A stretch of DNA of 64,000 bases. Source: Martelella radicis. Its GTDB lineage: Bacteria > Pseudomonadota > Alphaproteobacteria > Rhizobiales > Rhizobiaceae. The stretch spans positions 1 to 64,000 of the forward strand of contig NZ_JACIDZ010000012.1 of assembly GCF_014196625.1 (NCBI RefSeq). Direction: 5' to 3'. Shown piece by piece: positions 16,122 through 45,737 of the stretch. Numbering within the stretch: the stretch's first letter is position 1; each line of letters opens with the position of its first letter. The translations under genes and the position numbers were made by a program. The notes beneath the pieces were generated by a model. That model saw only the letters and a list, made by a program, of their open reading frames with translations. It was not told where the DNA came from and did no database searches.

Positions 16122-17576
16122 ATGCAGTGCCTATCCGACCTATCGCCGTCTTTTTCCGGCGGCCTTGAGCAGCGACTCGAACAGCTTGCCGCCCGTGCTA
16201 CATGGGAGATGGAGTGTATCGAGGCCGAGGCGCCGGTGTGGTTGAAGAAGCCGGCAGACGCGGCTCATTATAATGTCGTGATCGTTGGGGCAGGGCTGAA
16301 CGGCCTTTCTGCCGCCTTTGCGCTCAGGCGTCGCGGCATAGAGGGTGTTCTGGTCATCGATCAGGCCGCAGCCGGGCGCGAGGGGCCGTGGATCACGTCC
16401 GCGCGGATGAAGACATTGCGCTCGCCGAAGACGCTGGCCGGTCCTGATTTCGGCATTCCGAGCCTCAGCCCGCGGGCCTGGTATGAAGCCGTCTATGGCG
16501 CCGAGACCTTTGCCGGGCTTGAGAAGATCGGTCGCGAGGACTGGATGCGCTACATGCTCTGGTTCCGCCAGGCGAGCGGCGTGACGGTTCATAACGAAAC
16601 CCGGCTTGAGGCCGTGGCCGAAGCGGAAGAGGGCGTGCGCCTGACGATTTCGGGCAATGCGGGGCTTCCCGGCGAGATCACCTGCCGCCGGCTGATCATG
16701 GCCAATGGCATGGATGGCTGCGGCGGGCCATATGTGCCGGAGAATGTCGCCGCACTTCCCAAGGCATTCTGGACGCATAGCGGCGAAGAGGCCGATGACG
16801 GTCATCTTAAGGGCAAGGATGTGGTCGTTCTCGGCTCGGCCACCTCCAGCTTCGACTGGGCCGTGACCGCGCTTGAGGCGGGCGCGCGCCGCGTGACCAT
16901 GGTCGCCCGCGCAAAGGAACTTGCCTGCACCGAGGTGCTCGCATGGACCAATTTCCCCGGCTATCTCGGCACCTTTGCTGAATTGCCGGATGTAGAGAAA
17001 TGGCGCTTTTCGCGGCATTATTATGATCTGAAGGTGCCGCCGACGCAGGACCAGTATGACCGCGCCACGTCCTATCCGAATTTCACGATGGAGCTTGGCA
17101 GCGGCATAAATGCGCTTGCCGTCGAGGACGGCCGCATCCGCGCCGAGACGAAGAATGGCTCGCTGATGGCCGATCATATTCTGCTGGGCACCGGCTACAG
17201 CGTCGATTTTTCCATGCGGCCGGAGCTTCTCCCCCTTGAGGGGCGTTTTGCCCATTGGCGCGACCGTTTCATACCGCCTGAAGGCGAGGAATGCCCGCCG
17301 GTCTTGCAGGCGCCCTATCTTGGGCGCACATTCGAACTGACGCCGATGGATGAGGCGCGCGACCGGTGGATCTCGCGCATCCACATGTTCAATGGCGGCG
17401 CGGTGCCGAGCCTCGGGCCGGTTTCAAACGGCATCACCGGGGTCAAATACGGCATTGCCCGCATCGCCGACGGCATGACGCGGGCCTTTTTCCTGGAAGA
17501 CGCCGCGCGCTTCCGGGAAGAGCTTGCCGGCTATCGCGAACAGCATTTCAATCCGCGCGGAAGGGTCTCGGCCTGA
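16122..17576 (+). CDS. FAD-dependent oxidoreductase / flavin monooxygenase-like protein
   Basis: A 484-residue flavoprotein. The FAD-binding Rossmann motif VVIVGAGLNGLSAAFALRRR begins near residue 49, after an N-terminal extension. A second nucleotide-binding strand, VVVLGSATSSFDWAVTALEA, lies near residue 236; its second glycine is replaced (GSATSS rather than GxGxSG), so NAD(P)H binding may be altered. HILLGTGYSVDF matches the ATG-like motif of FAD-NADP monooxygenases. Stop to next ATG is 19 bases; it probably heads an operon with the questin-oxidase-like and amidohydrolase genes. Substrate unknown. Confidence 0.8.
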   Translation: MQCLSDLSPSFSGGLEQRLEQLAARATWEMECIEAEAPVWLKKPADAAHYNVVIVGAGLNGLSAAFALRRRGIEGVLVIDQAAAGREGPWITSARMKTLRSPKTLAGPDFGIPSLSPRAWYEAVYGAETFAGLEKIGREDWMRYMLWFRQASGVTVHNETRLEAVAEAEEGVRLTISGNAGLPGEITCRRLIMANGMDGCGGPYVPENVAALPKAFWTHSGEEADDGHLKGKDVVVLGSATSSFDWAVTALEAGARRVTMVARAKELACTEVLAWTNFPGYLGTFAELPDVEKWRFSRHYYDLKVPPTQDQYDRATSYPNFTMELGSGINALAVEDGRIRAETKNGSLMADHILLGTGYSVDFSMRPELLPLEGRFAHWRDRFIPPEGEECPPVLQAPYLGRTFELTPMDEARDRWISRIHMFNGGAVPSLGPVSNGITGVKYGIARIADGMTRAFFLEDAARFREELAGYREQHFNPRGRVSA

Positions 17577-17595
17577 TAGGGCCGGGGAGGACAAC

Positions 17596-18627
17596 ATGAC
17601 GACACCGCTGACACTCGATGCCGTGCTGGCCAAGGCCCAGACGCGCAGTTTCGAATTTCCCTACATGCTCGCCAATCACGTGCCGATGGTGCTGATCGCG
17701 CTCGATCGCCTTGGCGCCACGCCTGAGCGGCTCGACGAATGGTACGAGACCTATCGTGACGCCCATGCCGTGCCGCCGATCGCCGCCCCCGTCGCGCCGA
17801 TCAATCCCGGCAACTGGCAGGAAGCGCTCGGCGACCGCGCCCGCGAGGCGGATTATCGCGGCTTTTTCGTCGGCGAGGTGCAGCGCCTCGGCATCGACAA
17901 GGCAATCCGCGCCTATCTCCCGGCGATGACGCTGGGGATTGCCGGAAGCGCGACGCATCCGCTGATGCGGCTTGCCTATGGCGTGTTGAAGAATGACGCC
18001 CGCGAGGTCGGCCACGCGCTTGGCTATTGGGCGGCGACCTATCTGCCGCTGCCGGGGCCGGGCAGGTTCGAAGCTGACACGGATGATCCGGCGGAGGTGC
18101 TCGCCGGCATCGCCGAGATCGAGGGCATCCGCGATTACGAGACGGAGACCGATCTGCTCTGGCACAACATCCGCGCTGTCGGCGCGCTTCCGGGGTTTGC
18201 CCCGGTGATCGATCGGCTGCGGTTTCACGACAACACGGTGCGGCGGATGACCGAGGTGTCGCTTGTTGCCTTCGCCTTCACGCTGGATTTCTCCGCGCTG
18301 CACGCGCTCACCGGCATGCACTGGATGCGCCTTATCACCCCGCATGTGGATGAGGACAAGGTCGAGCCGCTTTACCGCGCCTTCTGGCAGGTGATTGCCG
18401 CGCTCATTCCCAAGATCGGCTTTCCGGTCTTTCCAACGGCAGACCAGGTGCAGGAAATGCGCGAACGCGATGCCCCCGAATGGCCGGAGATCAAGGCGGC
18501 GGCCATTGCCTCCTATGACGAGCACGACGTCAGCTTGGCCTTCTCGGCTTCGGAAGAGCAGAAAGCATGGGGCGGCGACCGGCTCTACCGCGTTGCCGCC
18601 GCCCGCCGTCTTCGCCTGATCGACTGA
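17596..18627 (+). CDS. Questin oxidase-like family protein (DUF4243)
   Basis: A 343-residue protein that I assign to the questin-oxidase-like family. Supporting stretches are FEFPYMLANHVPMVLIALDR, FVGEVQRLGIDKAIRAYLPA, THPLMRLAYGVLKNDAREVG and ALGYWAATYLPLPG, with several conserved His residues (NHVPM, HPLMRL, HNIRAV). The founding fungal enzyme performs Baeyer-Villiger type ring opening; bacterial members are uncharacterised. The ATG at 17596 has GGGGAGG 6 bases upstream. It sits 19 bases behind the flavoprotein gene. A role opening an aromatic or heterocyclic ring is inference. Assignment is from recognition of the motifs only. Confidence 0.65.
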   Translation: MTTPLTLDAVLAKAQTRSFEFPYMLANHVPMVLIALDRLGATPERLDEWYETYRDAHAVPPIAAPVAPINPGNWQEALGDRAREADYRGFFVGEVQRLGIDKAIRAYLPAMTLGIAGSATHPLMRLAYGVLKNDAREVGHALGYWAATYLPLPGPGRFEADTDDPAEVLAGIAEIEGIRDYETETDLLWHNIRAVGALPGFAPVIDRLRFHDNTVRRMTEVSLVAFAFTLDFSALHALTGMHWMRLITPHVDEDKVEPLYRAFWQVIAALIPKIGFPVFPTADQVQEMRERDAPEWPEIKAAAIASYDEHDVSLAFSASEEQKAWGGDRLYRVAAARRLRLID

Positions 18628-18644
18628 GGCCTGATCGACTGAGG
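18615..18644 (+). repeat. Perfect 15-bp tandem duplication at a stop codon
   Basis: cctgatcgactgagg occurs twice back to back, at 18615-18629 and 18630-18644. The first copy encodes the end of the questin-oxidase-like protein with its TGA; the second carries the GAGG used as ribosome site for the next gene. Confidence 0.9.
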
Positions 18645-18651
18645 AAAGCCA

Positions 18652-19842
18652 TTGCCTGCACATATCGCCGTTGAGAATATCCGCAATCACCGGGGTGAGC
18701 GCGTCACGCTCCTGGTTCGGGAGGGGCTTGTCGCCGGATTTGCGTCGGAAGGGACGGTTGATGTTCCCGATACGGCCGAGCGCTTCGACGGCGGCGGAAA
18801 GATGATCCTGCCGGGGCTTGTCGACGGGCATATCCATCTCGACAAGACGTTGATCGGCCTTCCCTTCATTCCGCATATTCCGGGCGAGACGGTAGCCAAA
18901 CGGATTGCCGCCGAGCGCGAACTGCGCCGCACGGTCGCGCTTCCCGTGAGTGCGCGCGGCGGGGCGCTGATCGAGAAGATCGCCGCACTGGGAACGGTCG
19001 CCGTCAGAAGCCATGTCGATATCGACACCGAGATCGGGCTGAAGGGGCTCGAACAGGTGCTGTCGCTGAGAGAGAGCCACGGCCATCTGATCGAGATCGA
19101 GATCGTCGCCTTTCCCCAATCCGGCATTATCCGTGATCCGGGCACGGCAGAGCTGCTGCACGAGGCTGTCGCGGCTGGCGCTGACCTTGTCGGCGGGCTG
19201 GATCCGGCCGGCATCGACAAAGATATCGAGGGTCATCTCAATGCCGTGTTTGCCGTTGCCGAGAGGCACAATGTCGGCGTCGACCTGCATCTTCATGACG
19301 GCGGCACGCTTGGCGCTTTCGAACTGCGCCAGATTGCCGAGCGCACGATCGCGCTGTCGCTTCAGGGCCGGGTGGCCGTCAGTCATGCCTTCTGCCTTGG
19401 CGAGCTTGATGAAGCAGACTTCGGCAGGACGGCGGCGCTTCTGGCGCGCGCCGGCGTGTCGATCATGACCAACGGCCCGGGTCCCGTGCCGATGCCGCCG
19501 GTCAAGCGGCTGGCAGAAGCCGGCGTGCGCGTTTTCTGCGGCTCCGACAATATCCGCGATGCCTGGTCGCCCTTCGGCAATGGCGATCTGATCGAGCGCG
19601 CAGGCATCATCTGCGACCGGCAAGATTTCCGCGCCGATGATGATCTTGAGCGGGCCTTTGAGCTGGTGACCGAGGCGTCAGGCGCGATGCTCGGTCGGGC
19701 CGACCCGCTTTCCCCCGGCGCGCCTGCCGATTTCATTCTGGTCGATTGCGGCAGCATTGCCGAGACCCTGGCCGAGCGCCCCGTGCGCCGCACCGTCTTC
19801 AAGGCCGGTCGCAGGATCGCCGAAGCCGGGCGGCTGGTGTAG
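18652..19842 (+). CDS. Cytosine-deaminase-like amidohydrolase, copy 1
   Basis: A 396-residue amidohydrolase of the cytosine deaminase/AtzC-like branch. Metal-site motifs are all present: LVDGHIHLDK near residue 58, VAVRSHVDIDTEIG, VDLHLHDGGTLGA, VSHAFCLGE and the Asp in CGSDNIRDAWSPFGNGD. The start is TTG at 18652 with GAGGAAAG upstream. It is followed after 3 bases by a divergent paralogue of the same family, so the two are translated together. Likely hydrolyses a ring or side-chain C-N bond of a nitrogen heterocycle; the substrate cannot be told. Confidence 0.85.
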   Translation: MPAHIAVENIRNHRGERVTLLVREGLVAGFASEGTVDVPDTAERFDGGGKMILPGLVDGHIHLDKTLIGLPFIPHIPGETVAKRIAAERELRRTVALPVSARGGALIEKIAALGTVAVRSHVDIDTEIGLKGLEQVLSLRESHGHLIEIEIVAFPQSGIIRDPGTAELLHEAVAAGADLVGGLDPAGIDKDIEGHLNAVFAVAERHNVGVDLHLHDGGTLGAFELRQIAERTIALSLQGRVAVSHAFCLGELDEADFGRTAALLARAGVSIMTNGPGPVPMPPVKRLAEAGVRVFCGSDNIRDAWSPFGNGDLIERAGIICDRQDFRADDDLERAFELVTEASGAMLGRADPLSPGAPADFILVDCGSIAETLAERPVRRTVFKAGRRIAEAGRLV

Positions 19843-21084: not shown

Positions 21085-21113
21085 AACACGAGGGCGTGGC
21101 CGGATCGGCACGC

Positions 21114-21124
21114 AAATTGCATTA
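21114..21124. promoter_or_regulatory. AAATTGCATWA word, copy 1
   Basis: AAATTGCATTA lies 45 bases upstream of the LysR gene at 21169. The same 11-base word, with A or T at position 10, occurs at 22247 and 37007, also ahead of LysR-linked catabolic genes. It may be a regulator site. Confidence 0.5.
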
Positions 21125-21168: not shown

Positions 21169-22167
21169 ATGATCACGGATCAGAACGGCACGATTGATGT
21201 CCGATTTTTACGCACGACCTTCCTTCTGTTGAGCGAACAGAACGTCTCGCGCGTCGCAGCCAGGCTCGGCCAGAGCCAGCCTTCCGTCAGCGCGGTGCTG
21301 AAACGCGCGCGCTTGGTTTTCGATGATCCGCTTCTGGTCAGGAGCGGGCAGGGCATGGCCGTGACGGAGCGGGGAGAGGCGGTGCGGACCTCGCTCGGCC
21401 GCATCCTGGCGGAACTCAGCGAGACGATCAGCCCGGAAGAGGCCTTCGATCCGGCCACCACCGCTTTCGCCATGCGGGTCTCGGCGATGAGCTGTTTCAA
21501 CGGTTTTCTCATTCCGCCGATTGCCGAACGGCTGCGCAAGGAGGCTCCGGCCGCTTCGATCGACTTTTTTGCGCCCTCGGAAAATGACGATCTGACCGAG
21601 CAATTGAGTTCCGGAGCGTCCGATCTGCTCGTTGCCAACTGGCCGGCGCCACATGAAAGCCTGCGCTCCAGCACGATCTTCGATTGCGAGACCGCCTGCA
21701 TCATGCGGGCCGATCATCCCTTTGCCGGAAACGGCAGCATGTCGTTGGACGATTACCTCGACCTGCCGCACCTCTCGCTCGGCTCGGTCGTGCGCCCTTC
21801 CTTCAGTCCCATCGGCGGACGGCTCAAGCAGCTTGGCGTCAACCGCCGGGTGGCGCTGTCCGTCCCCGAATATGCGCTGGTGCCGCCGGTGATCGCGCGC
21901 ACCGACCTGATCTTCACGACGGCGCGGCCCTATGCCGAGTTCGTTGTGGACCGCTATCCGGATTACGGCCTCTGCGTCGTTCCCGCGCCGCGCGATTTTG
22001 GCAATATGCGGCTTTATCTCCTCTGGCACGAACGCGCGCACAAGAGCCCGGCCAATCGCTGGGTTCGCAATCTTATTCGTGATGTTTCAAGGCGTTACGG
22101 TGCGGATCTGGAAGCGCGGCCGACGCCTGCCGCCATGGCCGGTCTTGCCGAACTCGCGGCGGTATAA
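21169..22167 (+). CDS. LysR family regulator, module A
   Basis: A 332-residue LysR-type regulator. The N-terminal helix-turn-helix includes LLSEQNVSRVAARLGQSQPS and VSAVLKRARLVFDDPLLVRS; the C-terminal effector domain follows. It is paralogous to the LysR at 37101: the pairs GNWPLPRDYLRF/ANWPAPHESLRS, VPEYALVPPVIARTDLIFTT/VAEFTLVPHMLARTDLVFTS and LWHERAHKSPANRW/LWHERSHLSPGNQW line up. It sits between the amidohydrolases and the creatininase-ABC operon, all on one strand, and probably controls one or both. Confidence 0.92.
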   Translation: MITDQNGTIDVRFLRTTFLLLSEQNVSRVAARLGQSQPSVSAVLKRARLVFDDPLLVRSGQGMAVTERGEAVRTSLGRILAELSETISPEEAFDPATTAFAMRVSAMSCFNGFLIPPIAERLRKEAPAASIDFFAPSENDDLTEQLSSGASDLLVANWPAPHESLRSSTIFDCETACIMRADHPFAGNGSMSLDDYLDLPHLSLGSVVRPSFSPIGGRLKQLGVNRRVALSVPEYALVPPVIARTDLIFTTARPYAEFVVDRYPDYGLCVVPAPRDFGNMRLYLLWHERAHKSPANRWVRNLIRDVSRRYGADLEARPTPAAMAGLAELAAV

Positions 22168-22246
22168 GCCGGAGCCTATACCGCATATAACTCACGGCGG
22201 AATTGCCGAACGTCAAATGCCATGATCATAATGTAGGCACAAATCG

Positions 22247-22346: not shown

Positions 22347-23162
22347 ATGCCGCTCAAATCGCACTGGTGGTGGGATCACACGACCAAGGACTTCACCGAT
22401 ATGGACATGTCGGAATTCGTCGCGATCCTGCCGGTGGCAGCCGTCGAGCAGCATGGCCCGCACCTGCCGGTCCGCGTCGATAGCGCCATCAATGCCGGGA
22501 TCATCAATCGCGCCGTCGAGATCATGCCCGACGACATGAAGGTTCTGGTCCTGCCGATGCAGGCAATCGGCAAGTCGGTCGAGCATCTGGAATATCCGGG
22601 CACGCTGACGCTGTCCTACGAGACGCTCGCCCGCCTCTGGTTCGAGATCGGCGAGAGCGTGGCGCGCGCAGGCTGCAAGAAGATCATCTTCGCCAATTCC
22701 CATGGCGGCCAGCCGCAGGTGATGGAAATCGTCTGCCGCGAGCTTCGCATCAAATGCGGCATGTTCGCCGTCTCCTCATGGGTGTCCGACGGCGCAAGCC
22801 AAGCCGCACTCTACAGCGAGCACGAGCTGAAGCACGGCATCCATGGCGGCGAATCCGAAACCTCGACCATGCTGCATCTGCATCCCGATCTGGTCGACAT
22901 GCAGTATGCCGATGACTTCCAGCCCATGTCGGTGGAGATGGAGCGCGGCAATCAGGTGCTGACGGCGGAAGGGCGGATCGGCTTCGGCTGGCAGACCCAG
23001 GACCTGCACCCCTCCGGCGCCTGCGGTAACGCCGCAGCTGCCGACGCTGAACGCGGCAAGATCCATGTCGAGCGTTCCGCTCAGAGCCTCGTGGCGCTTG
23101 CTGAAGAGGTTCTCGCCTTCCCGATGGAGCGGCTCACCCAGAAGACCATGTTCAAGGACTGA
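22347..23162 (+). CDS. Creatininase-family hydrolase, module A
   Basis: A 271-residue creatininase-like amidohydrolase. Metal-site motifs are EQHGPHLPVRVDSAINAG near residue 36, IIFANSHGGQPQVMEI and the HGGESETSTMLHLHPDLV segment, all conserved. Family members cleave cyclic or formyl amides (creatinine, formamide derivatives in riboflavin and mycofactocin pathways). The ATG at 22347 follows GGAAGGAAGG; an upstream in-frame start at 22203 has no such site. It begins an operon with the CocE-like hydrolase and a polyamine-type importer. A paralogue lies at 44916. Confidence 0.9.
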   Translation: MPLKSHWWWDHTTKDFTDMDMSEFVAILPVAAVEQHGPHLPVRVDSAINAGIINRAVEIMPDDMKVLVLPMQAIGKSVEHLEYPGTLTLSYETLARLWFEIGESVARAGCKKIIFANSHGGQPQVMEIVCRELRIKCGMFAVSSWVSDGASQAALYSEHELKHGIHGGESETSTMLHLHPDLVDMQYADDFQPMSVEMERGNQVLTAEGRIGFGWQTQDLHPSGACGNAAAADAERGKIHVERSAQSLVALAEEVLAFPMERLTQKTMFKD

Positions 23163-23166
23163 TCGC

Positions 23167-25792: not shown

Positions 25793-25819
25793 AAAAACAA
25801 AACCAGGAGAACAGCTGTC

Positions 25820-29731: not shown

Positions 29732-29990
29732 GGCGGATTCCCTATGTTGCCTTTCAGGCAACATTCTATGCGAAAATAAATGCTTTTAAAGCGACAAAAA
29801 CTACAGCACCATAGCGTCAGTGCTGAAGGCGTCATGGGCCACCGCAAAGCGATTTTTCCCCAGCAGATGCGGCGGTTTCAGCCTTCGGTTCCGGCATGAG
29901 CGGTTAATTAAGGTCTCCCACCACCTTGAAATGCTCCGCGCCGCTCATGCCGGCCCCTGTTTGCGTCAGAAAAGAATTCCAGAGGGTCCC
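29732..29990. promoter_or_regulatory. Divergent control region between the LysR gene and the cupin operon
   Basis: The 259 bases hold no supported gene. The AT-rich part (29765-29815) next to the LysR gene is the probable LysR target; no AAATTGCATWA word occurs here. Confidence 0.4.
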
Positions 29991-32884: not shown

Positions 32885-32891
32885 GGGTATC

Positions 32892-36965: not shown

Positions 36966-37006
36966 GCTTTACTCCGTTTGGCCGCCGCTTTGTTCGGGCG
37001 GCATGA

Positions 37007-37017
37007 AAATTGCATAA
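37007..37017. promoter_or_regulatory. AAATTGCATWA word, copy 3
   Basis: AAATTGCATAA lies 42 bases before the amidohydrolase ATG and about 84 bases before the LysR start, in a divergent gap of about 135 bases. This is the classic location of a LysR operator. Confidence 0.55.
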
Positions 37018-38250: not shown

Positions 38251-39282
38251 ATGCTGAAGAAACTGACCACAGCCCTTCTTGCCGGCGCCATCGGCCTGCC
38301 CGCCGCCGGCGCCTTTGCCGCTGACGATTATTCCGGCCACACGCTCGTTGTCGGCGTCTGGGGCGGCGATATCGAGCGTCTGCTGCGCGAAAACGTTGCC
38401 GAGCCGATCGAAGAGGAAACCGGCGCTTCCGTCGAATTCGTCCTCGGCGGCACGGGCGACCGCATGGCCCGAATCTATGCGGAAAAGGACAATCCGACCA
38501 TGGATGTCGCCTTCCTCAACATGTACGAGGCTCCGCAGGCGCTTTCCGATGGCATCGTTCTGCCGCCCGATCCGGAAACCGACATGTACAAGGCCATCTG
38601 GGACGGCATGAACAATGGCTGCTATGCCATGTCGCTGGTCGGCCTCGGCATTGCCTACAACAAGAACATCGTTGCCGAAGCGCCGGAATGGGAAGATATG
38701 TGGGACCCGGAATATAACGGCATGATTGCCGTTGCCCAGTATCCGGGTTCGGAGGGCGATGGCCTGATCGGCGTGGCCGCGCGCCTTGCCGGCGCCGACG
38801 AGCATGATCCCGATGCCGCTTTCGAAAAGCTTCAGGGCCTGAAGCCGATCGCCATGACCTACACCAATCTCGACGAGATCTTCGCCATGATGGATGCCGG
38901 CGAAGTGGCCATGGCGCCGATGATTTCCGGCTACGTGCTTTCCGCGCTGAAGGAACACCCCGATATCGGTTTCTCCTTCCCGACCGATCCCGGCCCGGTT
39001 CTGGTGCGCGACATGCTGTGCCTGGTCAAGGACAGCCCCGAGCCCGAACTCGCCGCAATGTTCGCCGAGAAGGCCCTCGGCGTTGCAAACCAGACCGATT
39101 ACGCCGAGCAGATCTTCTTCGGTCCGACCAACTCCATGGTCGAACTCTCCGAGGAAGCCTCCGCCGACGTGATCGACACGCCGGAAGAGGTCGAAAGCCT
39201 GGTGCAGCTTGACTGGCCCTATGTGATCGAGCAGCGCAGCGACTGGACCCAGCGCTGGAACAAGGAACTGCTCGAGCAGTAA
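38251..39282 (+). CDS. Polyamine-type ABC transporter substrate-binding protein, module B
   Basis: A 343-residue periplasmic binding protein with a Sec signal peptide (KKLTTALLAGAIGLPAAGAF then A-AD). HTLVVGVWGGDIERLLRE and FVLGGTGDRMARIYAEKDNP align with the module A protein at 25820. The ATG at 38251 follows AAGGGGAA; the frame is open upstream without a better site. It leads an operon of permeases, nucleoside phosphorylase, ATPase, kinase, glycohydrolase and creatininase. Given these partners, a nucleoside-like or modified base compound is a more likely ligand than a polyamine. Confidence 0.92.
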   Translation: MLKKLTTALLAGAIGLPAAGAFAADDYSGHTLVVGVWGGDIERLLRENVAEPIEEETGASVEFVLGGTGDRMARIYAEKDNPTMDVAFLNMYEAPQALSDGIVLPPDPETDMYKAIWDGMNNGCYAMSLVGLGIAYNKNIVAEAPEWEDMWDPEYNGMIAVAQYPGSEGDGLIGVAARLAGADEHDPDAAFEKLQGLKPIAMTYTNLDEIFAMMDAGEVAMAPMISGYVLSALKEHPDIGFSFPTDPGPVLVRDMLCLVKDSPEPELAAMFAEKALGVANQTDYAEQIFFGPTNSMVELSEEASADVIDTPEEVESLVQLDWPYVIEQRSDWTQRWNKELLEQ

Positions 39283-39354
39283 GCCCACGCCCCCTGCCGC
39301 CGCGCCGAAACCGGTGCGGCGGCATTTCGGTGACGCGGCAACCCGGTGATTTTC

Positions 39355-40203
39355 ATGAACAAACGCGCGCTCATGCTGCTGATGCCGGCACTCATCCTGT
39401 CGGGCATCGTCTTTCTGCTTCCCTTCCTGTGGCTGTTCGTCACCAGTTTCCGGGTGCAGGGGGAAGGCTCGCTGTTGATGGCGGAAGGTTTTTCCGCGGC
39501 CAATTACGCCAGGCTGGTGTCCGATACATACTTCGCCGAGGTGTTCTTCCGCACAATCTGGATGAGCGCCGCGGCAACCGCGATCTCCCTTGTCATCGCG
39601 CTGCCGATGGCGCGCCAGATCGCCGTCAGCGCCGGCCGCGCCAAGGGGCTGCTGCTAGCCCTCATTCTGGTGCCGCTCGTCTCCGGCGCGCTGCTCCCCA
39701 CACTCGGCATGCTGCATCTTCTTGGCCCGCTCGGGGTTATCAACTCCATCCTCAAGGACCTCGGCCTGATTACTCGCAGCGTCAAGTTCCTCGGCACGGT
39801 GCCGGGCGTCATCATCGGCCTGGTGCAGGCCTTCCTGCCGCTGATGCTGCTGCCGCTGGTCAACGCGCTTTCCCGCCTGCCGAAGGATGTGGAGGCCGCT
39901 GCCGAAACGCTGGGCGCGCCGACATTCATCGTCTGGCGGCGCGTCATCCTGCCGCTGATCGCGCCGGGCATCATTGCCGGCTCGGTGCTGGTGTTCTGCG
40001 CCTCGCTCACCTCCTTTGTCACGCCTCAGATCCTCGGCCAGGGCAAGATCGCCACCTTCGGCACCATGGCCTATCAGCAGGCCTCGCTTGTGCTGGACTG
40101 GCCGTTTGCCTCGGCAATCGCCGTGGTCATGCTGGCGATCCTCGCGCTCGGCCTTGCCATCGGCTCGTTTGCCTCGAAACTGCTCGCACGGAGGCCCGCA
40201 TGA
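39355..40203 (+). CDS. ABC transporter permease (PotB-like), module B
   Basis: A 282-residue permease with about six hydrophobic segments and the EAA loop EAAAETLGAPTFIVWRRVIL followed by PLIAPGIIAG. The ATG at 39355 is taken; a GTG at 39346 is also in frame and neither has a strong ribosome site. Its stop overlaps the next permease start (ATGA), so the pair is coupled. Together they correspond to the two halves of the fused permease in module A. Confidence 0.92.
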   Translation: MNKRALMLLMPALILSGIVFLLPFLWLFVTSFRVQGEGSLLMAEGFSAANYARLVSDTYFAEVFFRTIWMSAAATAISLVIALPMARQIAVSAGRAKGLLLALILVPLVSGALLPTLGMLHLLGPLGVINSILKDLGLITRSVKFLGTVPGVIIGLVQAFLPLMLLPLVNALSRLPKDVEAAAETLGAPTFIVWRRVILPLIAPGIIAGSVLVFCASLTSFVTPQILGQGKIATFGTMAYQQASLVLDWPFASAIAVVMLAILALGLAIGSFASKLLARRPA

Positions 40204-40994
40204 AGACCTATGGGTTCGCGGTTTCGGCCCGCTTTGTCTGGACCGTTCTCGCCTTCGTTTTTCTTCTGGCGCCGATCGCGGTGCTGATCTTCGCGTCCTT
40301 CGACGATGCGAGCTTCTTCCGCTTTCCGCCCAATACCTATTCGCTGCGCTGGTACGAGGCGGCCCTTGAGAGCCGTGAGTATAAAAGCGCGCTGTCGGTC
40401 TCGCTGCTGGTCGCAATCCTTGCAGGTTTCATCGCCGTCCTCTTCGGCGCCATGGCGGCCTTCGCGCTGGTGCGCTACCGGCCCGCCGGCGGGCGGATTG
40501 TCGAGGCGATCCTGATGACCCCGCTGGTGCTGCCGCTGATCGTCTGGGCGATTGCGCTTCTGCAGATCTATTCGCGTCTCGGCATGTCCGGCACACTGCC
40601 GGCACTGGTGCTCGCCCACGCGGTGATCACCATGCCCTTTTCCGTGCGCATCATGGTTTCCACCTTTGCCGATCTCGATCCGCTTCTGGAACAGGCCGCC
40701 GCCACGCTTGGCGCGTCACCCGGCCGCGTTGTCCGCCGCATCACCCTGCCGCTTGCCATGCCGGGGCTTGTCTCATCGGCTGCCTTCTCTGTGCTGATCT
40801 CCTTCAACGATGTGATTGTTTCCTCGCTGATTGCCGGCGCGCGCTGGATCACCTTTCCGGTCCGGCTTTACGCCCAGCTTCGAAGCCAGGGCATCGATCC
40901 AATCACGCTTGCCATCGGTTCGGCGATCGTCGCCTTCATCCTTGTCGCCGCGCTGATCGGCGAATTCATGTTCAAATGGTCACGCCGTCTTTGA
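40200..40994 (+). CDS. ABC transporter permease (PotC-like), module B
   Basis: A 264-residue permease with about six hydrophobic segments and EAA loop LEQAAATLGASPGRVVRRIT followed by LPLAMPGLVSS. The start overlaps the preceding stop. A 13-base gap separates it from the nucleoside phosphorylase gene, which breaks into the transporter genes ahead of the ATPase. Confidence 0.92.
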   Translation: MKTYGFAVSARFVWTVLAFVFLLAPIAVLIFASFDDASFFRFPPNTYSLRWYEAALESREYKSALSVSLLVAILAGFIAVLFGAMAAFALVRYRPAGGRIVEAILMTPLVLPLIVWAIALLQIYSRLGMSGTLPALVLAHAVITMPFSVRIMVSTFADLDPLLEQAAATLGASPGRVVRRITLPLAMPGLVSSAAFSVLISFNDVIVSSLIAGARWITFPVRLYAQLRSQGIDPITLAIGSAIVAFILVAALIGEFMFKWSRRL

Positions 40995-41007
40995 GAAAGA
41001 AAGAACA

Positions 41008-41835
41008 ATGTCCGAAGAATACCGCTATCTCAAAACCATGCCGCATTTCGTGCGCGACGGCGTGCCGCTGCTGACCGGCTTCAAACGCGACCGCATCGCC
41101 CCTTATGTGGTGCTCGCCGTCAAGGATCCGCTGGTCGTCGGTGACGGCGCGGAGGAGGACTCCCTTGCCGCCGCCCTCGACAACGCCGAAATCTCGGCAA
41201 AGACCGGCCTCTTCACCACGGTGACGGGCACTTATGACGGCGCGCCGATCTCGATCGTTTCCGGCGGCTCCGGTTCGCCCGAGGCGGAACTGGCACTGAT
41301 GGACCTGTTCAACTTCACCGATTGCACCACCGTCATCCGCATTGGCGGCTGCGGCGCGTGGAGCCCGAAGGTTGGCGTCGGCGATATCGTCATCTCCTCC
41401 GGCGCGGTGCGCGACGAAGGTATGACCAAGGCGCATGTGCGTCCCGAATATCCGGCGGTTGCCGACTGGCAGGTGGTCGGCGCGATGAAGGCGGCGGCCG
41501 ATGAGGTTGGCCATCCCTATCACATTGGCATCACCCGTTCGGGCGACAGCGAATATTGCGGCTGGGGCAAGCCGGGGCCGGGCGGCTATCTGCAGGAAGA
41601 CCACAAGCAGATCATCGATTACTGGAGCCGCGCCGGCGTGCTCAACACCGACCGCGAGGCCGCCGCGATCCTGACGCTCTGCAGCCTTTACGGCCGGCGC
41701 GGCGGGGCCGTCTGCTCGGTCGGCGACAATGTGGTGACCGGCGAATTGCACAAATCCGGTTCCGGCCAGACGGCGGCGATCACGGTCGGGCTTACCGCGC
41801 TTGCAAGGCTTTTCCGGGAGGACGCCAATGGCTGA
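41008..41835 (+). CDS. Nucleoside phosphorylase family protein
   Basis: A 275-residue phosphorylase of the uridine/purine nucleoside phosphorylase (NP-I) fold. Motifs are TVTGTYDGAPISIVSGGSGS, ELALMDLFNFTDCTTVIRIG followed by GCGAW, GVGDIVISSGAVRDEGMT and AVCSVGDNVVTGEL. The enzyme would split an N-glycosidic bond with phosphate, giving a base and a sugar 1-phosphate. It is placed between permease and ATPase genes of the importer (8-base overlap with the latter), so import and cleavage are tightly linked. Base specificity is not evident. Confidence 0.88.
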   Translation: MSEEYRYLKTMPHFVRDGVPLLTGFKRDRIAPYVVLAVKDPLVVGDGAEEDSLAAALDNAEISAKTGLFTTVTGTYDGAPISIVSGGSGSPEAELALMDLFNFTDCTTVIRIGGCGAWSPKVGVGDIVISSGAVRDEGMTKAHVRPEYPAVADWQVVGAMKAAADEVGHPYHIGITRSGDSEYCGWGKPGPGGYLQEDHKQIIDYWSRAGVLNTDREAAAILTLCSLYGRRGGAVCSVGDNVVTGELHKSGSGQTAAITVGLTALARLFREDANG

Positions 41836-42931
41836 GAAGCACGCACCCGACCATCTGGTGATCCAGAAGGTGATGAAGCATTATGGCGGCGGCGGCGAGC
41901 CGGCGCTGAAAAGCGTGTCCCTCAATGTGCGCAAGGGCGAATTCCTGGCGCTGCTCGGTCCTTCCGGCTGCGGCAAGACCACCTTGCTGAAGATCATCGC
42001 CGGCCTTGAAAAGGCGACCGAGGGCCAGATGGCGCTGGCGGGCGAGGGGCTCGATGCCATCCCGACCTACAGGCGCGATATCGGCATTGTCTTCCAGTCC
42101 TATGCGCTGTTTCCGCACATGACGGTCGATGCCAATATCCGCTTCGGCCTCGACATGCGCGGCATCAAGGGCAAGGAGGCCGATGACCGCGTCGAAGAGG
42201 CGCTCGACCTGGTCAAGCTCGATGGGCTTTCGGCCCGCATGCCGAATGCGCTTTCCGGCGGTCAGCAGCAGCGCGTGGCGCTCGCCCGTGCGCTGGTCAT
42301 CCGGCCGAAGCTTCTGCTGCTCGACGAGCCGCTTTCCAATCTCGATGCGGTGCTCAGAAAGAGCGTCCGCGTCGATATCCGCGAACTGCATGAGCGCATC
42401 GGACTGACGACGGTCATGGTCACCCATGACCAGGAGGAGGCGATGAGCATGGCCGACCGCGTGGCGGTGATGGCCAATGGCTATGTGCTGCAGCATGATA
42501 CGCCCGAGACGATCTACGAGCATCCGGCATCCGCCTTCGTGGCAACCTTTGTCGGCAGCCCGCCGGCGATCCTTCTGCCGGTGGAAAAGACAGGCGAGGG
42601 CTACGGCATTGGCGGCACGGCCTTCACCCCATCGAGCTCACTCGCCGCCGCAATCGCGATGCAAAACGGCAAGCCGGTGCTGCTGGGGCTCCGCTCCGAC
42701 CGGCTCTCCTTCGCCGATGAACCCGGTCCGCTGACGATCACCGGCGAGGTGCATTCCAGCGAATATATCGGCGGCTCCTGGCTGGTGCATGTGGCGCTCG
42801 GCGAACACCGTATCGCCGTGCCGACGCGCGAGCGCCCGCCGCAGTTCGGCGAAGTCGCCCATATCCGCATCGACGAGGCCGAGCCGCTGCTCTTCGATCC
42901 CGACACCGGCGCCAGGGTCGCGCACTCATGA
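41828..42931 (+). CDS. Polyamine-type ABC transporter ATP-binding protein, module B
   Basis: A 367-residue PotA-like ATPase: Walker A LLGPSGCGKTTLLKIIAGLE near residue 41, signature ALSGGQQQRVALARAL near 140, Walker B LLLLDEPLSNLDAV near 162, and a C-terminal TOBE region. The ATG at 41828 has GGGAGGAC upstream and overlaps the phosphorylase end. Its end overlaps the kinase start by 4 bases. It completes the module B importer. Confidence 0.93.
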   Translation: MAEKHAPDHLVIQKVMKHYGGGGEPALKSVSLNVRKGEFLALLGPSGCGKTTLLKIIAGLEKATEGQMALAGEGLDAIPTYRRDIGIVFQSYALFPHMTVDANIRFGLDMRGIKGKEADDRVEEALDLVKLDGLSARMPNALSGGQQQRVALARALVIRPKLLLLDEPLSNLDAVLRKSVRVDIRELHERIGLTTVMVTHDQEEAMSMADRVAVMANGYVLQHDTPETIYEHPASAFVATFVGSPPAILLPVEKTGEGYGIGGTAFTPSSSLAAAIAMQNGKPVLLGLRSDRLSFADEPGPLTITGEVHSSEYIGGSWLVHVALGEHRIAVPTRERPPQFGEVAHIRIDEAEPLLFDPDTGARVAHS

Positions 42932-43863
42932 ACGGCGCGATCTATTGCCTCGGGCCGCTTGTGCTCGACCGGGTGCTGACCGTCGATGACCTGCCGGGCC
43001 ACGACGAGAAAGCCTTCATCAAGAAAAAGGAAGAACGCGCCGGCGGTCCGCCGCTGAATTGCGCCTGGGCGCTGAGCCGGCTCGGCGAGGATGCGCGGCT
43101 GGTCTCCACAATCGGCGATGACGGCGAGGGCGCGATACTGATGCAGTGGCTCGCCGAGCGCGACATGAGCACCGAGGCCGTCGACGTGAAGGCCGACAGC
43201 GTCACGGCCTCCGCCACCATCATCGTCGATCGCACCGGCGAGAAGGCGATCCTGATCGATCCCGTTCCCGTCGAGACGCTGGCGGTGATCGGCGACCGTG
43301 TTTCGCTGCAGGCAGGCGATACGGTCGTCTCCAATTTCTTCCATCCGGAAGCCGTGGCGCGCATGTTCGATCGCGCAGCGAAAACCGGCATCGACCGGAT
43401 GATCGATCTGGAATTGCCGGAGATCGAACGCTGGGGCTGGCAGGCGATGGAAAACATCCTGCCCTTCGCCTCGCTGGTGGTCACCAACCGACAGGTGCTG
43501 GAGGCTTGGATGGCGCGGACGGGCAATGATCGTCCGATTGGCGAAGCCGCTGAAGATCTGGCGCACTTTCTGTCCGGCGCGGGGGCGCGCAAGGCAGTCG
43601 TCACGCTCGGCTCGGGGGGACTGGTCGCAATCGATGGCGATGCAGTGTTCTACCTTGATGCCTTCAAGGTGACGCCGCGCAACACGACGGGTGCGGGCGA
43701 TGTGTTTCTGGCAGGCCTTGCCACTGCCATGCGGCGCGGCCGCAAATTCGAAAAGGCGCTCGCCTTCGGCACGGCCGCTGCCGCGCATTTCCTGGAAACG
43801 GGACGGTGCGACGCTGCAGCCGCGGAAGCCCTGATGAAAGACAAGATGAAGGAAAGACTGTAG
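42928..43863 (+). CDS. PfkB family (ribokinase-like) carbohydrate kinase
   Basis: A 311-residue PfkB kinase. GGPPLNCAWALSRLGEDARL with STIGDDGEGAILMQWL is motif 1 and NTTGAGDVFLAGLATAMRRG holds the catalytic GAGD Asp (about residue 257). Family members phosphorylate ribose, nucleosides or other sugars. Following a nucleoside phosphorylase and preceding an ADP-ribosylglycohydrolase, it probably phosphorylates a released pentose or the nucleoside itself. The ATG overlaps the ATPase gene stop (ATGA). Confidence 0.9.
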   Translation: MNGAIYCLGPLVLDRVLTVDDLPGHDEKAFIKKKEERAGGPPLNCAWALSRLGEDARLVSTIGDDGEGAILMQWLAERDMSTEAVDVKADSVTASATIIVDRTGEKAILIDPVPVETLAVIGDRVSLQAGDTVVSNFFHPEAVARMFDRAAKTGIDRMIDLELPEIERWGWQAMENILPFASLVVTNRQVLEAWMARTGNDRPIGEAAEDLAHFLSGAGARKAVVTLGSGGLVAIDGDAVFYLDAFKVTPRNTTGAGDVFLAGLATAMRRGRKFEKALAFGTAAAAHFLETGRCDAAAAEALMKDKMKERL

Positions 43864-43866
43864 AAA

Positions 43867-44919
43867 ATGGCTACCACGTCCAAAGCAATCGAGGCCGTGC
43901 TTTCGGCCGCCTGCGTCGCCGATGCGCTGGGAGCCGCCACCGAATGCATGCATCCCGACGAGATTATCCGGGTATTCGGCGGACCGGTGACGGCATTCCG
44001 CACGCCGCCGGAAAAATCCCCCTTCGCCAAGGGTCTCGCGCCGGGCCGGCTGACGGATGATGCGACGCAGATGCTGGCCATGGCCAAGCGCATCATCGGG
44101 CTTGAGCGTGCGCCGGTCTCCGCCGACGCGATTGCCGGCTTCATCGACTGGTCGCATGACGAGGAAATGTTCCAGCGCTTTGCCGGGCCGACCACCCGCA
44201 TTGCAGTCGAGGCCATGCGCGCCGGCGCGCCCGCGGAAGCCGTCGCCACGCCCGAGACCTATTCCTGCATGTTCGGCACCTCTAATGGCGGGGCCATGCG
44301 CGCACCGACGGCAGGCTGTGCCGCCGCCGGCAATCTTTCCGAGGCCGTGCGCATTGCCTGCCTGATGTCGGCGCCGACGCACAACACCCAGATTGCCTAT
44401 GCCGGCGCCTCCGCCGTTGCCGGCGCCATCGCCGTCGGGCTTTCGTCCGAGCGGTCGATGACGATTGTCGAGGCAGCGCTTGAAGGCGCGCGGCTCGGCG
44501 AGGTGGAAGCGCGCACAACCGGCCGCATCGTCGGCGGCGCAGGCGTTGCCCGCCGCATCGAGATCGCGGTCGAGATCGGTATCCGCTACAAGGCGGATAT
44601 CGAGGCCGCGCGCGCCGAACTGATCGAGGTGATCGGCAATGGCGTTGCCATGTCCGAAGCCGTGCCGCATGCTTTCGGCCTTGTCGCCGCCGCTGACGGC
44701 GACCCGTGGACGGCAATCGTCGCTGCCGTCAATGGCGGTAATGACAGCGACACGATCGCGATGATCGCAGGCGCGGTTGCCGCTGCCTGGAACGGCGCGG
44801 CGGGCATTCCGGCTCAACTGGTCGAGGAGGTCTCGACTGTGAACGGGCTTGATCTGGCGGGCGTTGCCGAGGGGCTTGCGACATTCAATGAACAAGTGAT
44901 TGCGGGAGAACACGCATGA
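43867..44919 (+). CDS. ADP-ribosylglycohydrolase family protein
   Basis: A 350-residue ARH-fold protein. Metal-binding positions are in VADALGAATECMHPDEI (residue 18 on), RLTDDATQMLAMAKRIIG (Asp-Asp about 63) and NGGNDSDTIAMIAGAVAAAW (about 288), the binuclear Mg site of the family. Classic members remove ADP-ribose from proteins; others hydrolyse small N-glycosides such as ADP-ribose derivatives or nucleosides. In an operon with an importer, phosphorylase and kinase a small-molecule N-glycosidase is the better guess. Start 3 bases after the kinase stop; end overlaps the creatininase gene. Confidence 0.88.
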   Translation: MATTSKAIEAVLSAACVADALGAATECMHPDEIIRVFGGPVTAFRTPPEKSPFAKGLAPGRLTDDATQMLAMAKRIIGLERAPVSADAIAGFIDWSHDEEMFQRFAGPTTRIAVEAMRAGAPAEAVATPETYSCMFGTSNGGAMRAPTAGCAAAGNLSEAVRIACLMSAPTHNTQIAYAGASAVAGAIAVGLSSERSMTIVEAALEGARLGEVEARTTGRIVGGAGVARRIEIAVEIGIRYKADIEAARAELIEVIGNGVAMSEAVPHAFGLVAAADGDPWTAIVAAVNGGNDSDTIAMIAGAVAAAWNGAAGIPAQLVEEVSTVNGLDLAGVAEGLATFNEQVIAGEHA

Positions 44920-45737
44920 AGCGCTATTGGCTGGAAATGACATCGCCGGACCATGCGGCGCTGCCGGAAAACACGGTGGCGGTTCTGCCTGTCGGCGCGA
45001 CCGAGCAGCATGGCCCGCACCTGCCTGTCGGCACGGATTGCCTGATCAATAGCGGCATTGTCTCGGCCGCGCTCAACAAGCTTGGCGATGATGTTCCGGC
45101 CGTCGTCCTGCCGCTGCAGCCGGTCGGCGCGTCTCAGGAACATCTCGATTATGCCGGATCGCTCGCCCATCCCGCGCCCGATTTGATGCAATCCTGGACG
45201 CGGGTGCTTGATTGCGCGGTGCGCTCCACCGGGCTGAAACGCATCCTGATCTTCAACAGCCATGGCGGCCAGGCGGGGCTTCTGGCGACGGTCGCGCTCG
45301 ATCAGCGCGTGCGCCACAATATCCTCGGCGCCTATGCCACCTGGTTTGAGGCCGGCTATCCGGAAGGGCTTTTCGCCGATGACGAGATCCGCACCGGCTT
45401 TCACGGCGGCGATATCGAGACATCGCTGATGCTGGCGCTGCATCCGGAACTGGTGGTGATGGAGAATCTTGGCGATTTCCGTTCTTCCGTCGATGAAATC
45501 GAAGCGGGTACGCAGCAGCTTTCCGCCAATCCCGGCGGCGGACGCGTCGGCGGCCTCGGCTGGAAGGCGCAGGACCTCAATGCCGATGGCGTGACCGGCG
45601 ATGCGAGCCGCGCCACGGCGGAAAAGGGCAGGGCGTTGCTGGAGCACACGGCGGCAAGCCTTGCGGCGCTGATCACCGATCTGGCGAACGCCCCGATGCC
45701 GTCGGACAACTGGCCGCCGGAGAAGTACCGGGCTTGA
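44916..45737 (+). CDS. Creatininase-family hydrolase, module B
   Basis: A 273-residue creatininase-like hydrolase: VLPVGATEQHGPHLPVGTDC near residue 27, ILIFNSHGGQAGLLATVALD and TGFHGGDIETSLMLALHPEL hold the metal ligands. Paralogue of the protein at 22347. It ends the nucleoside operon (ATGA overlap with the glycohydrolase). As last enzyme it could open a cyclic amide produced from the base. An inverted repeat follows before putA. Confidence 0.9.
   Translation: MKRYWLEMTSPDHAALPENTVAVLPVGATEQHGPHLPVGTDCLINSGIVSAALNKLGDDVPAVVLPLQPVGASQEHLDYAGSLAHPAPDLMQSWTRVLDCAVRSTGLKRILIFNSHGGQAGLLATVALDQRVRHNILGAYATWFEAGYPEGLFADDEIRTGFHGGDIETSLMLALHPELVVMENLGDFRSSVDEIEAGTQQLSANPGGGRVGGLGWKAQDLNADGVTGDASRATAEKGRALLEHTAASLAALITDLANAPMPSDNWPPEKYRA

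What the first reader, a model, noticed from the sequence alone, without database searches (positions are those of the whole stretch)
16122..45737. A 30-kb catabolic region with two related import-and-degrade modules
Seen: two LysR proteins (21169, 37101), two polyamine-type binding proteins (25820, 38251), two PotA-like ATPases and two creatininases (22347, 44916) are paralogous pairs, surrounded by three amidohydrolases, CocE-like, cysteine, amidase and Ntn hydrolases. Known: these families cleave amide, ureide or heterocyclic C-N bonds. Inferred: a composite nitrogen-scavenging island for two related N-rich compounds. I know of no described pathway with this exact set.
Basis: partly seen in the sequence, partly recalled or inferred. 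Interest (0 to 1): 0.75.

Follow-up and report, generated by a model that had tools for sequence, protein, structure and literature searches.

The report
Composite nitrogen-salvage island in Martelella
A bacterium of the genus Martelella carries, side by side, several import-and-digest gene sets for small nitrogen-rich ring compounds, one of them probably for rings attached to ribose; they seem to share their last steps and may be switched on when nitrogen is scarce, but the exact compounds are not yet known.

Summary
In detail: 27 genes, about 95% coding. The LysR pair and the binding-protein pair are best partners within the genome. The PotA-like pair is not special and the creatininase-family pair is not unique.

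Comparison with relatives splits the region into separable units. (A) FAD monooxygenase, questin-oxidase-like protein, two AtzC/cytosine-deaminase-like amidohydrolases. (B) LysR1, CRE1, CocE-like hydrolase, importer; plus an operon of cupin, isochorismatase-like hydrolase, HpxZ, amidase and HpxW-like 'GGT'. (C) AH3, LysR2, importer, uridine-phosphorylase-like protein, PfkB kinase, ADP-ribosylglycohydrolase-like protein, CRE2.

The cupin-isochorismatase pair recurs beside unit-B-type creatininases (9 of 20 loci hold a creatininase) and beside AH3 (2 of 20). So B and C probably converge on one lower pathway, which resembles the oxalurate/oxamate (HPX) branch of purine breakdown. Unit C looks like a riboside version: one relative cluster lacks exactly the ribose genes. 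Sigma-54-like sites precede both LysR genes and are conserved, which points to nitrogen control.

Substrates are unidentified and nothing is tested in the laboratory.

The parts
14634..15938 (-). SBP0, MalE-like binding protein of an importer outside the finding; permeases at 13605-14600 and 12790-13608 (-); probably part of unit A
   Evidence: Pfam SBP_bac_1 142.5 bits, BPD_transp_1 for both permeases; 60% relative beside FMO-QOX-AH2 in L305 and a 65% partial one in L311. No ABC ATPase related to ATP1/ATP2 was found in the window below 16000
16122..17576 (+). unit A: FAD-dependent monooxygenase-like protein (FMO)
   Evidence: Pfam Pyr_redox_3 9.6e-15
17596..18627 (+). unit A: questin-oxidase-like protein (QOX)
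   Evidence: PF14027 1.9e-25
18652..19842 (+). unit A: amidohydrolase AH1, AtzC/cytosine-deaminase-like
   Evidence: NF004636 497.8 bits, cut-off 408; PDB 6nbo 317 bits
19846..21084 (+). unit A: amidohydrolase AH2
   Evidence: Amidohydro_3 1.6e-17; NF004636 218.7, below cut-off 408
21106..21121 (+). sigma-54-type -24/-12 site before LysR1
   Evidence: only 1-mismatch match in the window to a consensus written beforehand; conserved in relatives
21169..22167 (+). unit B: LysR1 regulator
   Evidence: LysR_substrate and HTH_1
22347..23162 (+). unit B: creatininase-family hydrolase CRE1
   Evidence: PF02633 226 bits; below cut-offs of creatininase, MftE and IolN models
23065..24777 (+). unit B: CocE/NonD-family hydrolase; ORF given, true start uncertain, probably near 23190
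   Evidence: TIGR00976 329.6 bits, cut-off 66.3
24752..25792 (+). unit B: importer ATPase ATP1
   Evidence: ABC_tran, TOBE_2; below PotA and PhnT2 cut-offs
25820..26872 (+). unit B: binding protein SBP1
   Evidence: SBP_bac_8, SBP_bac_6
26869..28557 (+). unit B: fused two-domain permease PERM1 (start approximate; ORF 26293-28557)
   Evidence: BPD_transp_1, two stretches
28829..29764 (-). LysR0, divergent regulator of the cupin operon
   Evidence: LysR_substrate, HTH_1; beside the cupin-isochorismatase pair in 5 of 20 loci
29991..30419 (+). lower operon: small cupin CUP
   Evidence: Cupin_2 1.7e-14
30419..31204 (+). lower operon: isochorismatase-like hydrolase ISO
   Evidence: RutB 133.5 and BiuH 130.6 bits, both below cut-off; candidate Asp/Lys/Cys triad in 41 of 41 sequences
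31201..31614 (+). lower operon: HpxZ / AtzH-like protein
   Evidence: NF033625 HpxZ 170.2 bits, cut-off 135; PF11533 179.8 bits
31727..32884 (+). lower operon: amidase of the AtzE/HpxY type (AMI)
   Evidence: NF006169 449.5 bits, cut-off 391; AtzE model 206.8, cut-off 425.75
32892..34478 (+). lower operon: HpxW-like Ntn hydrolase ('GGT')
   Evidence: best solved structure 5hft, 263.8 and 257.7 bits for its two chains, next 244.3; below the gamma-glutamyltransferase cut-off, 299.5 against 357.85
34482..35444 (-). D-erythronate-dehydrogenase-like protein DEN, unit C in Martelella
   Evidence: NF043036 265.4 bits, cut-off 325; with unit C in G005 and G008, 52% relative after CRE2 in L167
35460..36965 (-). 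unit C: amidohydrolase AH3 of the TRZ/ATZ deaminase type
   Evidence: NF004701 263.8 bits, below cut-off 609; metal-ligand-type residues in 36 of 36
36999..37014 (+). sigma-54-type -24/-12 site before LysR2
37101..38084 (+). unit C: LysR2 regulator (alternative start 37083)
   Evidence: LysR_substrate, HTH_1
38251..39282 (+). unit C: binding protein SBP2
   Evidence: SBP_bac_8
39346..40203 (+). unit C: permease PERM2a
   Evidence: 58-80% relatives in the same place in unit-C loci
40200..40994 (+). unit C: permease PERM2b
   Evidence: BPD_transp_1 in the ORF 39330-40994, residues 369-545
41008..41835 (+). unit C: uridine-phosphorylase-family protein, probably a nucleosidase (NP)
   Evidence: TIGR01718 158.5 bits, cut-off 280.3; changed binding residues
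41801..42931 (+). unit C: importer ATPase ATP2
   Evidence: ABC_tran, TOBE_2
42928..43863 (+). unit C: PfkB-family kinase, ribokinase-like
   Evidence: TIGR02152 ribokinase 112.6 bits, cut-off 299.65
43867..44919 (+). unit C: ADP-ribosylglycohydrolase-family protein (ARH)
   Evidence: PF03747 158.9 bits; acidic motifs kept in at least 95 of 96
44916..45737 (+). unit C: creatininase-family hydrolase CRE2
   Evidence: PF02633 207.5 bits; below creatininase, MftE, IolN and ArfB cut-offs

Best explanation
The region is a nitrogen-salvage island made of separable units that probably converge. Each unit imports a small N-rich ring compound through its own ABC importer. In unit C (35460-45737) the imported compound is a riboside: NP and/or ARH cut it from ribose, PFKB phosphorylates the ribose, AH3 removes an exocyclic amine and CRE2 opens the resulting cyclic amide. 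In unit B (21169-28557) CRE1 and the CocE-like hydrolase do the corresponding opening and deacylation on a compound without ribose. Both give ureido acids that the operon 29991-34478 dismantles: CUP and ISO remove the carbamoyl part, HpxZ, the amidase and the HpxW-like hydrolase finish an oxalurate/oxamate-like remainder to oxalate and ammonia. LysR1 and LysR2 switch the units on with their ligand, and sigma-54 promoters in front of them tie expression to nitrogen shortage. Shown here: gene content, unit borders, conservation, the recurrent CUP-ISO link to both creatininase and AH3, HpxZ membership by cut-off, closeness of the GGT-like protein to the structure 5hft, and conserved -24/-12-like sites. 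Inferred: every reaction, their order, the riboside nature of the unit-C substrate, and control by nitrogen.
For: Unit borders: FMO to CRE2 contiguous and in the same order in G011, G002 and G006; split between LysR0 and PERM1 in G010; A+B without C in G007; C on another contig in G005 and G008; remnants of HpxW, ARH and CRE2 beside A+B in G004. SBP1 in 9 of 13 Martelella genomes, ISO in the same 9, ARH at full length in 7 of 13, all among those 9. Unit C order AH3-LysR2-SBP2-PERM2a-PERM2b-NP-ATP2-PFKB in 11 of 11 order-level loci with NP at 69% or more; CRE2 in 10 (one contig ends), ARH in 8 (absent in 2, contig ends in 1). CUP-ISO pair outside the island: 20 loci, with a creatininase in 9, HpxZ in 8, amidase in 8, CocE in 7, AH3 in 2. 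A cluster in G005 (L312) has AH3, CRE2, SBP2, both permeases and ATP2 but no NP, PFKB or ARH. NP has lost most residues that bind phosphate and uracil in uridine phosphorylase (roles of residues recalled). HpxZ 170.2 against cut-off 135; HpxW-like. Sigma-54-like sites: strict pattern twice in the window, both before the two LysR genes; in 23 of 26 distinct upstream regions, shuffles mean 0.044, highest 2; rpoN present.
Against: No enzyme passes a model that names a substrate-defining activity except HpxZ, whose own reaction is uncertain. HpxW is beside the CUP-ISO pair in only 1 of 20 outside loci and is instead near AH2 relatives in 5 of 9, so it may serve unit A. No HpxX/AtzG gene fits between HpxZ and the amidase (112 bp). 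AH3 is with CUP-ISO in only 2 of 20. The cluster without ribose genes is a single case. The strict sigma-54 pattern was written after seeing the sites; the pattern written beforehand has fewer matches in the window than shuffles (18 against 28.3); 11 of 21 further loci scanned have no such site before a pathway gene, among them G273 and G266, the nearest unit-B relatives (no shuffle control). Many loci compared are related, so counts are not independent.
Confidence: 0.45

Rival explanations
1. Two (or three) independent pathways for unrelated or loosely related nitrogen compounds that happen to be neighbours; unit C has its own complete route and the CUP operon serves only unit B.
For: Units B and C each have their own importer, LysR and creatininase, and each exists without the other. 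In 9 of 11 order-level unit-C loci no cupin or ISO relative was found in the stretch fetched.
Against: CUP beside AH3 in L158, CUP and ISO beside AH3 in L161 and L226; in Martelella unit C is found only in genomes that have unit B and ISO, 7 of 7.
Confidence: 0.3
2. Carbon rather than nitrogen acquisition, or detoxification of nucleoside-like antibiotics; ammonia is a by-product.
For: Unit C would free ribose and has a sugar kinase; DEN resembles a sugar-acid dehydrogenase; the SBP0 importer is MalE-like.
Against: Number of C-N hydrolases; sigma-54-like sites before both LysR genes; no resistance or export gene was recognised among the 27 genes.
Confidence: 0.15
3. Known creatinine breakdown, or a relative of it: deaminase, hydantoin opening, carbamoyl-sarcosine-type hydrolase.
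For: Same order of chemistry: AH3 (deaminase family), creatininase family, ISO (family that includes N-carbamoylsarcosine amidase; 3eef listed).
Against: CRE1 73.9 and CRE2 68.1 bits against a creatininase cut-off of 235; no creatinase-family protein among the genes scanned; ribose genes unexplained.
Confidence: 0.07

Closest known systems
hpxWXYZ operon of Klebsiella (oxalurate/oxamate branch of purine breakdown)
   Same: HpxZ by cut-off, HpxW-like hydrolase, AtzE/HpxY-type amidase next to them
   Different: No HpxX-like gene in the 112-bp gap, no allantoin or allantoate enzymes recognised in the island; ISO, cupin, creatininase-family proteins and dedicated importers are added
atzG-atzE-atzH clusters and the cyanuric acid operon of Pseudomonas sp. 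ADP (PMC6219798, abstract and passages)
   Same: AtzE-type amidase next to an AtzH-family protein; the paper describes ggt-atzG-atzE-atzH clusters in Enterobacteriaceae of unknown role
   Different: AtzD (cyanuric acid hydrolase) was not recognised; the amidase is far below the allophanate hydrolase cut-off (154.7 against 511.05); creatininase and cupin partners are not mentioned in the passages seen
Triuret/biuret clusters of nitrifiers and Herbaspirillum (trtA, biuH; PMC12625717, passages)
   Same: Isochorismatase-like hydrolase with amidohydrolases; one archaeal biuH lies near a creatininase-like gene
   Different: ISO is below both RutB and BiuH cut-offs; no allophanate hydrolase; importers of another type in the window
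Creatinine/creatine use in Corynebacterium (creatininase, N-carbamoylsarcosine amidase, HyuB; PMC8864220, passages)
   Same: Creatininase family and an isochorismatase-like amidase used for nitrogen
   Different: Different subfamilies, no HyuA/HyuB, ABC importers instead of an MFS transporter
E. coli yegTUV (nucleoside transporter, ADP-ribosylglycohydrolase, PfkB kinase; recalled, no call)
   Same: Pairing of an ADP-ribosylglycohydrolase-like protein with a PfkB kinase
   Different: Here joined to a uridine-phosphorylase-like protein, creatininase and AH3, with an ABC importer

Membership tests
HPX oxalurate operon (hpxWXYZ) | HpxZ protein | tested here: met
   NF033625 170.2 bits, cut-off 135
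HPX oxalurate operon (hpxWXYZ) | HpxW oxamate amidohydrolase rather than gamma-glutamyltransferase | tested here: inconclusive
   Closest structure 5hft, below the GGT cut-off. That 5hft is the Klebsiella HpxW is recalled; the record calls it gamma-glutamyltranspeptidase. Activity not testable
HPX oxalurate operon (hpxWXYZ) | HpxX small subunit between W/Z and Y | tested here: not met
   112-bp gap before the amidase, 7-bp gap after it; not searched elsewhere in the genome
HPX oxalurate operon (hpxWXYZ) | upstream urate/allantoin enzymes in the neighbourhood | tested here: not met
   none among the 27 genes scanned with Pfam; the rest of the genome was not searched for them
Creatininase (creatinine amidohydrolase) | score above the creatininase equivalog cut-off | tested here: not met
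   73.9 and 68.1 bits against 235
Creatininase-fold hydrolase superfamily (PF02633) | family score and conserved Glu/His/Asp/His/Glu residues | tested here: met
   226 and 207.5 bits; residues in 37 of 39 (2 gaps) or 39 of 39; the metal role is recalled
Mycofactocin MftE / IolN / ArfB | equivalog cut-off | tested here: not met
   CRE1 103.9 and CRE2 94.3 against 172; 49.7 and 57.3 against 245; CRE2 22.2 against 180
Uridine phosphorylase | equivalog cut-off and phosphate/uracil-binding residues | tested here: not met
   158.5 against 280.3; R30, R48, T94, F162, Q166, R168 replaced, R91 and E198 kept (roles recalled)
RutB ureidoacrylate hydrolase / biuret hydrolase | equivalog cut-off | tested here: not met
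   133.5 against 377.95; 130.6 against 370
Polyamine importer PotABCD | equivalog cut-offs of PotA, PotB/C, PotD | tested here: not met
   ATP1 325.7 and ATP2 314.8 against 482; permeases 157.9, 130.6 and 139.3 against 326-348; SBP1 25.9 against 582
Sigma-54 (-24/-12) promoter | GG-N10-GC with consensus context, in promoter position, conserved | tested here: met
   consensus recalled
Sigma-54 (-24/-12) promoter | dependence on RpoN and an enhancer-binding protein | not testable with these tools
   rpoN present; enhancer site not searched for

The most novel reading that the evidence does not exclude
Unit C is a dedicated salvage route for ribosides of damaged or modified bases: for example oxidised guanosine products of the hydantoin, parabanate or oxalurate type, or a creatinine-like riboside. 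A nucleosidase frees the base, AH3 deaminates it, a creatininase-fold enzyme opens the ring as a cyclic-ureide hydrolase, and the product joins the oxalurate/oxamate branch. That would be a second entrance to the HPX branch that bypasses urate and allantoin, and would give a catabolic role to a creatininase subfamily, an ADP-ribosylglycohydrolase-like protein and a nucleosidase subfamily that have none.
Probability: 0.12. Interest if true: 0.75.

Novelty: new variant of a known kind. Interest (0 to 1): 0.5.

Why it matters
If right, a class-wide but unnamed way to use cyclic ureides and their ribosides as nitrogen sources becomes testable gene by gene. It would assign functions to protein subfamilies that annotation now calls creatininase, gamma-glutamyltransferase, polyamine transporter or uridine phosphorylase, names that the cut-offs used here do not support. 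The sigma-54-like sites give a direct way to test nitrogen control.

Tried and rejected
Rejected as evidence: the PotA pair (55 relatives in the genome) and the creatininase pair as proof of a recent module duplication (five copies; tree unresolved). The tree left out rows L036, L300, L223 and L014 that the collection step had found; the fifth own-genome creatininase (L005) was not among the 38 rows collected; the bootstrap had not settled and long branches are flagged.

Considered and dropped: an s-triazine pathway (no AtzD or AtzF recognised); selenocysteine in ISO, because five relatives were flagged with an inner TGA: in all five it is the terminal stop (the script then failed on a sixth sequence, a cupin relative flagged with a TAG, which was therefore not checked); the uridine phosphorylase label for NP.

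Led nowhere: paper searches returned no paper, and none for the uridine phosphorylase residues, so their roles are recalled; two searches returned only PMC12625717, one unrelated paper. Structure prediction, fold search, viral-contig, plasmid and phage searches were not used. PHROGs and PADLOC were not used.


Full report
What is there. The window lies in a 4,985,483-base genome of 41 contigs. The genus is inferred to be Martelella: a genome of the same genus (G010) has a contig of the same length as the Martelella lutilitoris record (423,783 bases). The finding spans 27 genes, about 95% coding.

Are the pairs real? LysR1 and LysR2 are 41% identical with nearly the same recognition-helix region, and LysR2 is by far the best partner of LysR1 in the genome: 260 bits, next 122. 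SBP2 is the best partner of SBP1: 157 bits, next in the genome 75. The ATPases are not specific. CRE1 and CRE2 are 39% identical, but a third copy is equally close to CRE1 (42%) and the tree (34 rows) does not resolve them; it does group CRE1 with the creatininases of four other cupin-isochorismatase loci and of G266 (support 93/99).

Units. In three Martelella genomes (G011, G002, G006) the genes from FMO to CRE2 are contiguous in the same order. In G010 the FMO-PERM1 block and the LysR0-CRE2 block lie on different contigs. G007 has FMO to HpxW and no unit C. G005 and G008 have FMO to HpxW with the cupin operon turned round, and unit C with DEN on another contig. G004 keeps FMO to PERM1, followed by fragments of LysR0, HpxW, ARH and CRE2. 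Of 13 Martelella genomes, 9 have SBP1, the same 9 have an ISO (in G004 it is a different, 65% copy in a second cluster, L302), and 7, all among those 9, have full-length ARH.

Unit C elsewhere. Of 397 genomes drawn from the order, 16 have an NP relative at E<=1e-40; 12 of these, the own genome included, are at 69% or more. In all 11 others the order AH3 (divergent), LysR2, SBP2, PERM2a, PERM2b, NP, ATP2, PFKB is kept; CRE2 follows in 10 (one contig ends) and ARH is present in 8, in one of them as two pieces, absent in 2 and undecided in 1. The other four genomes (NP at 53% or less), and second copies in two genomes, showed no further unit-C set apart from importer-like genes. Named holders include Prosthecomicrobium pneumaticum, Rhizobium lusitanum and Pleomorphomonas sp. 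JP5; some are the same genomes as unnamed ones above. Of the 80 loci kept most have only the ADP-ribosylglycohydrolase relative. In G005 a second cluster (L312) has AH3 66%, CRE2 46%, SBP2 61%, both permeases and ATP2 but no NP, PFKB or ARH. This single case suggests that AH3, CRE2 and importer are the core and that the ribose genes are an addition.

Unit B and the lower operon elsewhere. SBP1 relatives at 50% or more occur in 4 of 396 other genomes of the order sample: G273 and G266 have CRE1-CocE-ATP1-SBP1-PERM1, and in G273 LysR0, CUP, ISO and HpxZ follow; G103 and G125 have only the importer. ISO relatives gave 30 rows outside the own genome; 29 were read in context (not G121), and 12 of the 29 have CUP next to ISO. 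A class-wide CUP search hit 9 of 375 other genomes; 7 of 9 have ISO next to it. Together with L302 there are 20 CUP-ISO loci outside the island: creatininase in 9, FAD_binding_4 oxidase in 10, HpxZ 8, amidase 8, CocE 7, NQO-like flavoprotein 6, NMT1-type binding protein 6, LysR0 5, AH2-like 4, SBP1 3, AH3 2, HpxW 1. With an assumed 5, 10 or 20 creatininases per 5 Mb the chance of 9 of 20 is 7e-11, 3e-8 or 1e-5; loci are partly related, so these are upper limits of confidence. CUP lies next to AH3 in L158 and CUP-ISO in L161 and L226. This is the main argument that B and C converge.

Unit A. AH2 relatives are common: 63 of 327 genomes. I read the context of 9 of the 19 loci returned outside the own genome: AH1 in 3, FMO and QOX in 2, an SBP0 relative in 2, a GGT-family protein in 5 (37-62%). 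So the HpxW-like protein may belong as much to unit A as to the cupin operon.

Chemistry. HpxZ passes its cut-off. The GGT-family protein is closest to 5hft, which I recall as the Klebsiella oxamate amidohydrolase HpxW; PMC3560190 (passages) reports that hpxW is often misannotated as ggt, and PMC5270733 (passages) that HpxW turns oxamate into oxalate and ammonium. The AtzH paper PMC6219798 (abstract and passages) describes AtzH as a decarboxylating 1,3-dicarboxyurea amidohydrolase and ggt-atzG-atzE-atzH clusters of unknown role. ISO lies between RutB and biuret hydrolase and below both cut-offs; Asp, Lys and Cys at the family's catalytic positions are kept in 41 of 41 (role recalled). Residues of the creatininase, amidohydrolase and ADP-ribosylhydrolase metal sites are kept (roles recalled). 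NP keeps the equivalents of R91 and E198 of E. coli uridine phosphorylase, but has Glu for R30, Gly for R48, Gly for T94, Glu for F162, Trp for Q166 and Lys for R168; across 27 relatives Gly at the R48 position in 25, Gly at the T94 position in 25, Arg at the R30 position in 2. I read this as loss of phosphate and uracil binding, hence a hydrolase, which fits the kinase next to it.

Regulation. A sigma-54 consensus written beforehand (TGGCAC-N5-TTGCW, up to 2 mismatches) matches 18 times in the window, fewer than in shuffles (28.3); its only 1-mismatch match is at 21106, before LysR1, and another is at 36999, before LysR2. By my arithmetic two matches in these 219 bp would be expected about 5 times in 10,000. 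A stricter pattern written after seeing the sites occurs only at these two places in both strands of the window; a looser one occurs 8 times. Of 26 distinct regions upstream of LysR1 or LysR2 relatives (50% identity or more) 23 have the strict pattern and 25 the loose one, shuffles mean 0.044 (highest 2) and 0.342 (highest 4). Many of the 26 are close relatives, but they include other families of the order. In 21 other loci such sites lie before a recognised gene in 10, for example before CRE1, AH2-like and the FAD oxidase in L329 and before ISO and the amidase in L331, and in none of the other 11, among them G273, G266 and L302; one of the 10 (L231) lies inside ISO and is probably chance (no shuffle control). 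The genome has rpoN.

Conclusion. The island is real and old, and its units are separable. I think units B and C feed one lower pathway of oxalurate/oxamate type, that unit C handles a riboside, and that nitrogen shortage drives expression. No reaction has been tested and the substrates are not known. In the searches of the held library I found no description of this set; most subscription journals are not in that library.

Noticed in passing
own genome contig 2, about 58300-67300 (L172 9797-18756): A further creatininase-family cluster: creatininase 42% to CRE1, LysR0-like regulator, NMT1-type ABC importer, AH2-like amidohydrolase, FAD_binding_4 oxidase, flavodoxin-like NQO. The last four kinds recur beside CUP-ISO in other Alphaproteobacteria, so it may be a distant part or variant of the same pathway.
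   Followed up: partly
L302 (G004:C39:186001-206000): Second unit-B-like cluster in a Martelella genome with an NMT1-type importer and three FAD_binding_4 hits instead of the SBP1 importer.
   Followed up: partly
L303 (G004:C1) 18112-19600: Fragments of LysR0, HpxW, ARH and CRE2 beside an intact FMO-PERM1 block: a decayed copy of the island's right half.
   Followed up: partly
window 45781-45916: Inverted repeat with 47-nt arms, 83% complementary, 42 nt apart, between CRE2 and the convergent putA; a similar-looking palindromic intergenic element lies at 28558-28828 (sequence, not analysed).
   Followed up: no
L154 (G266) 2382-4800: Short pieces similar to LysR2 (43 aa), to an NMT1-type binding protein (59 aa) and to ATP2 (45 aa) near CRE1-CocE-ATP1-SBP1-PERM1; remnants or chance matches.
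   Followed up: no
L227, L235 and L231: ISO-amidase pairs beside importers whose binding proteins look like BMP-type nucleoside or urea/amide-type ones by eye; not scanned with a family model.
   Followed up: no
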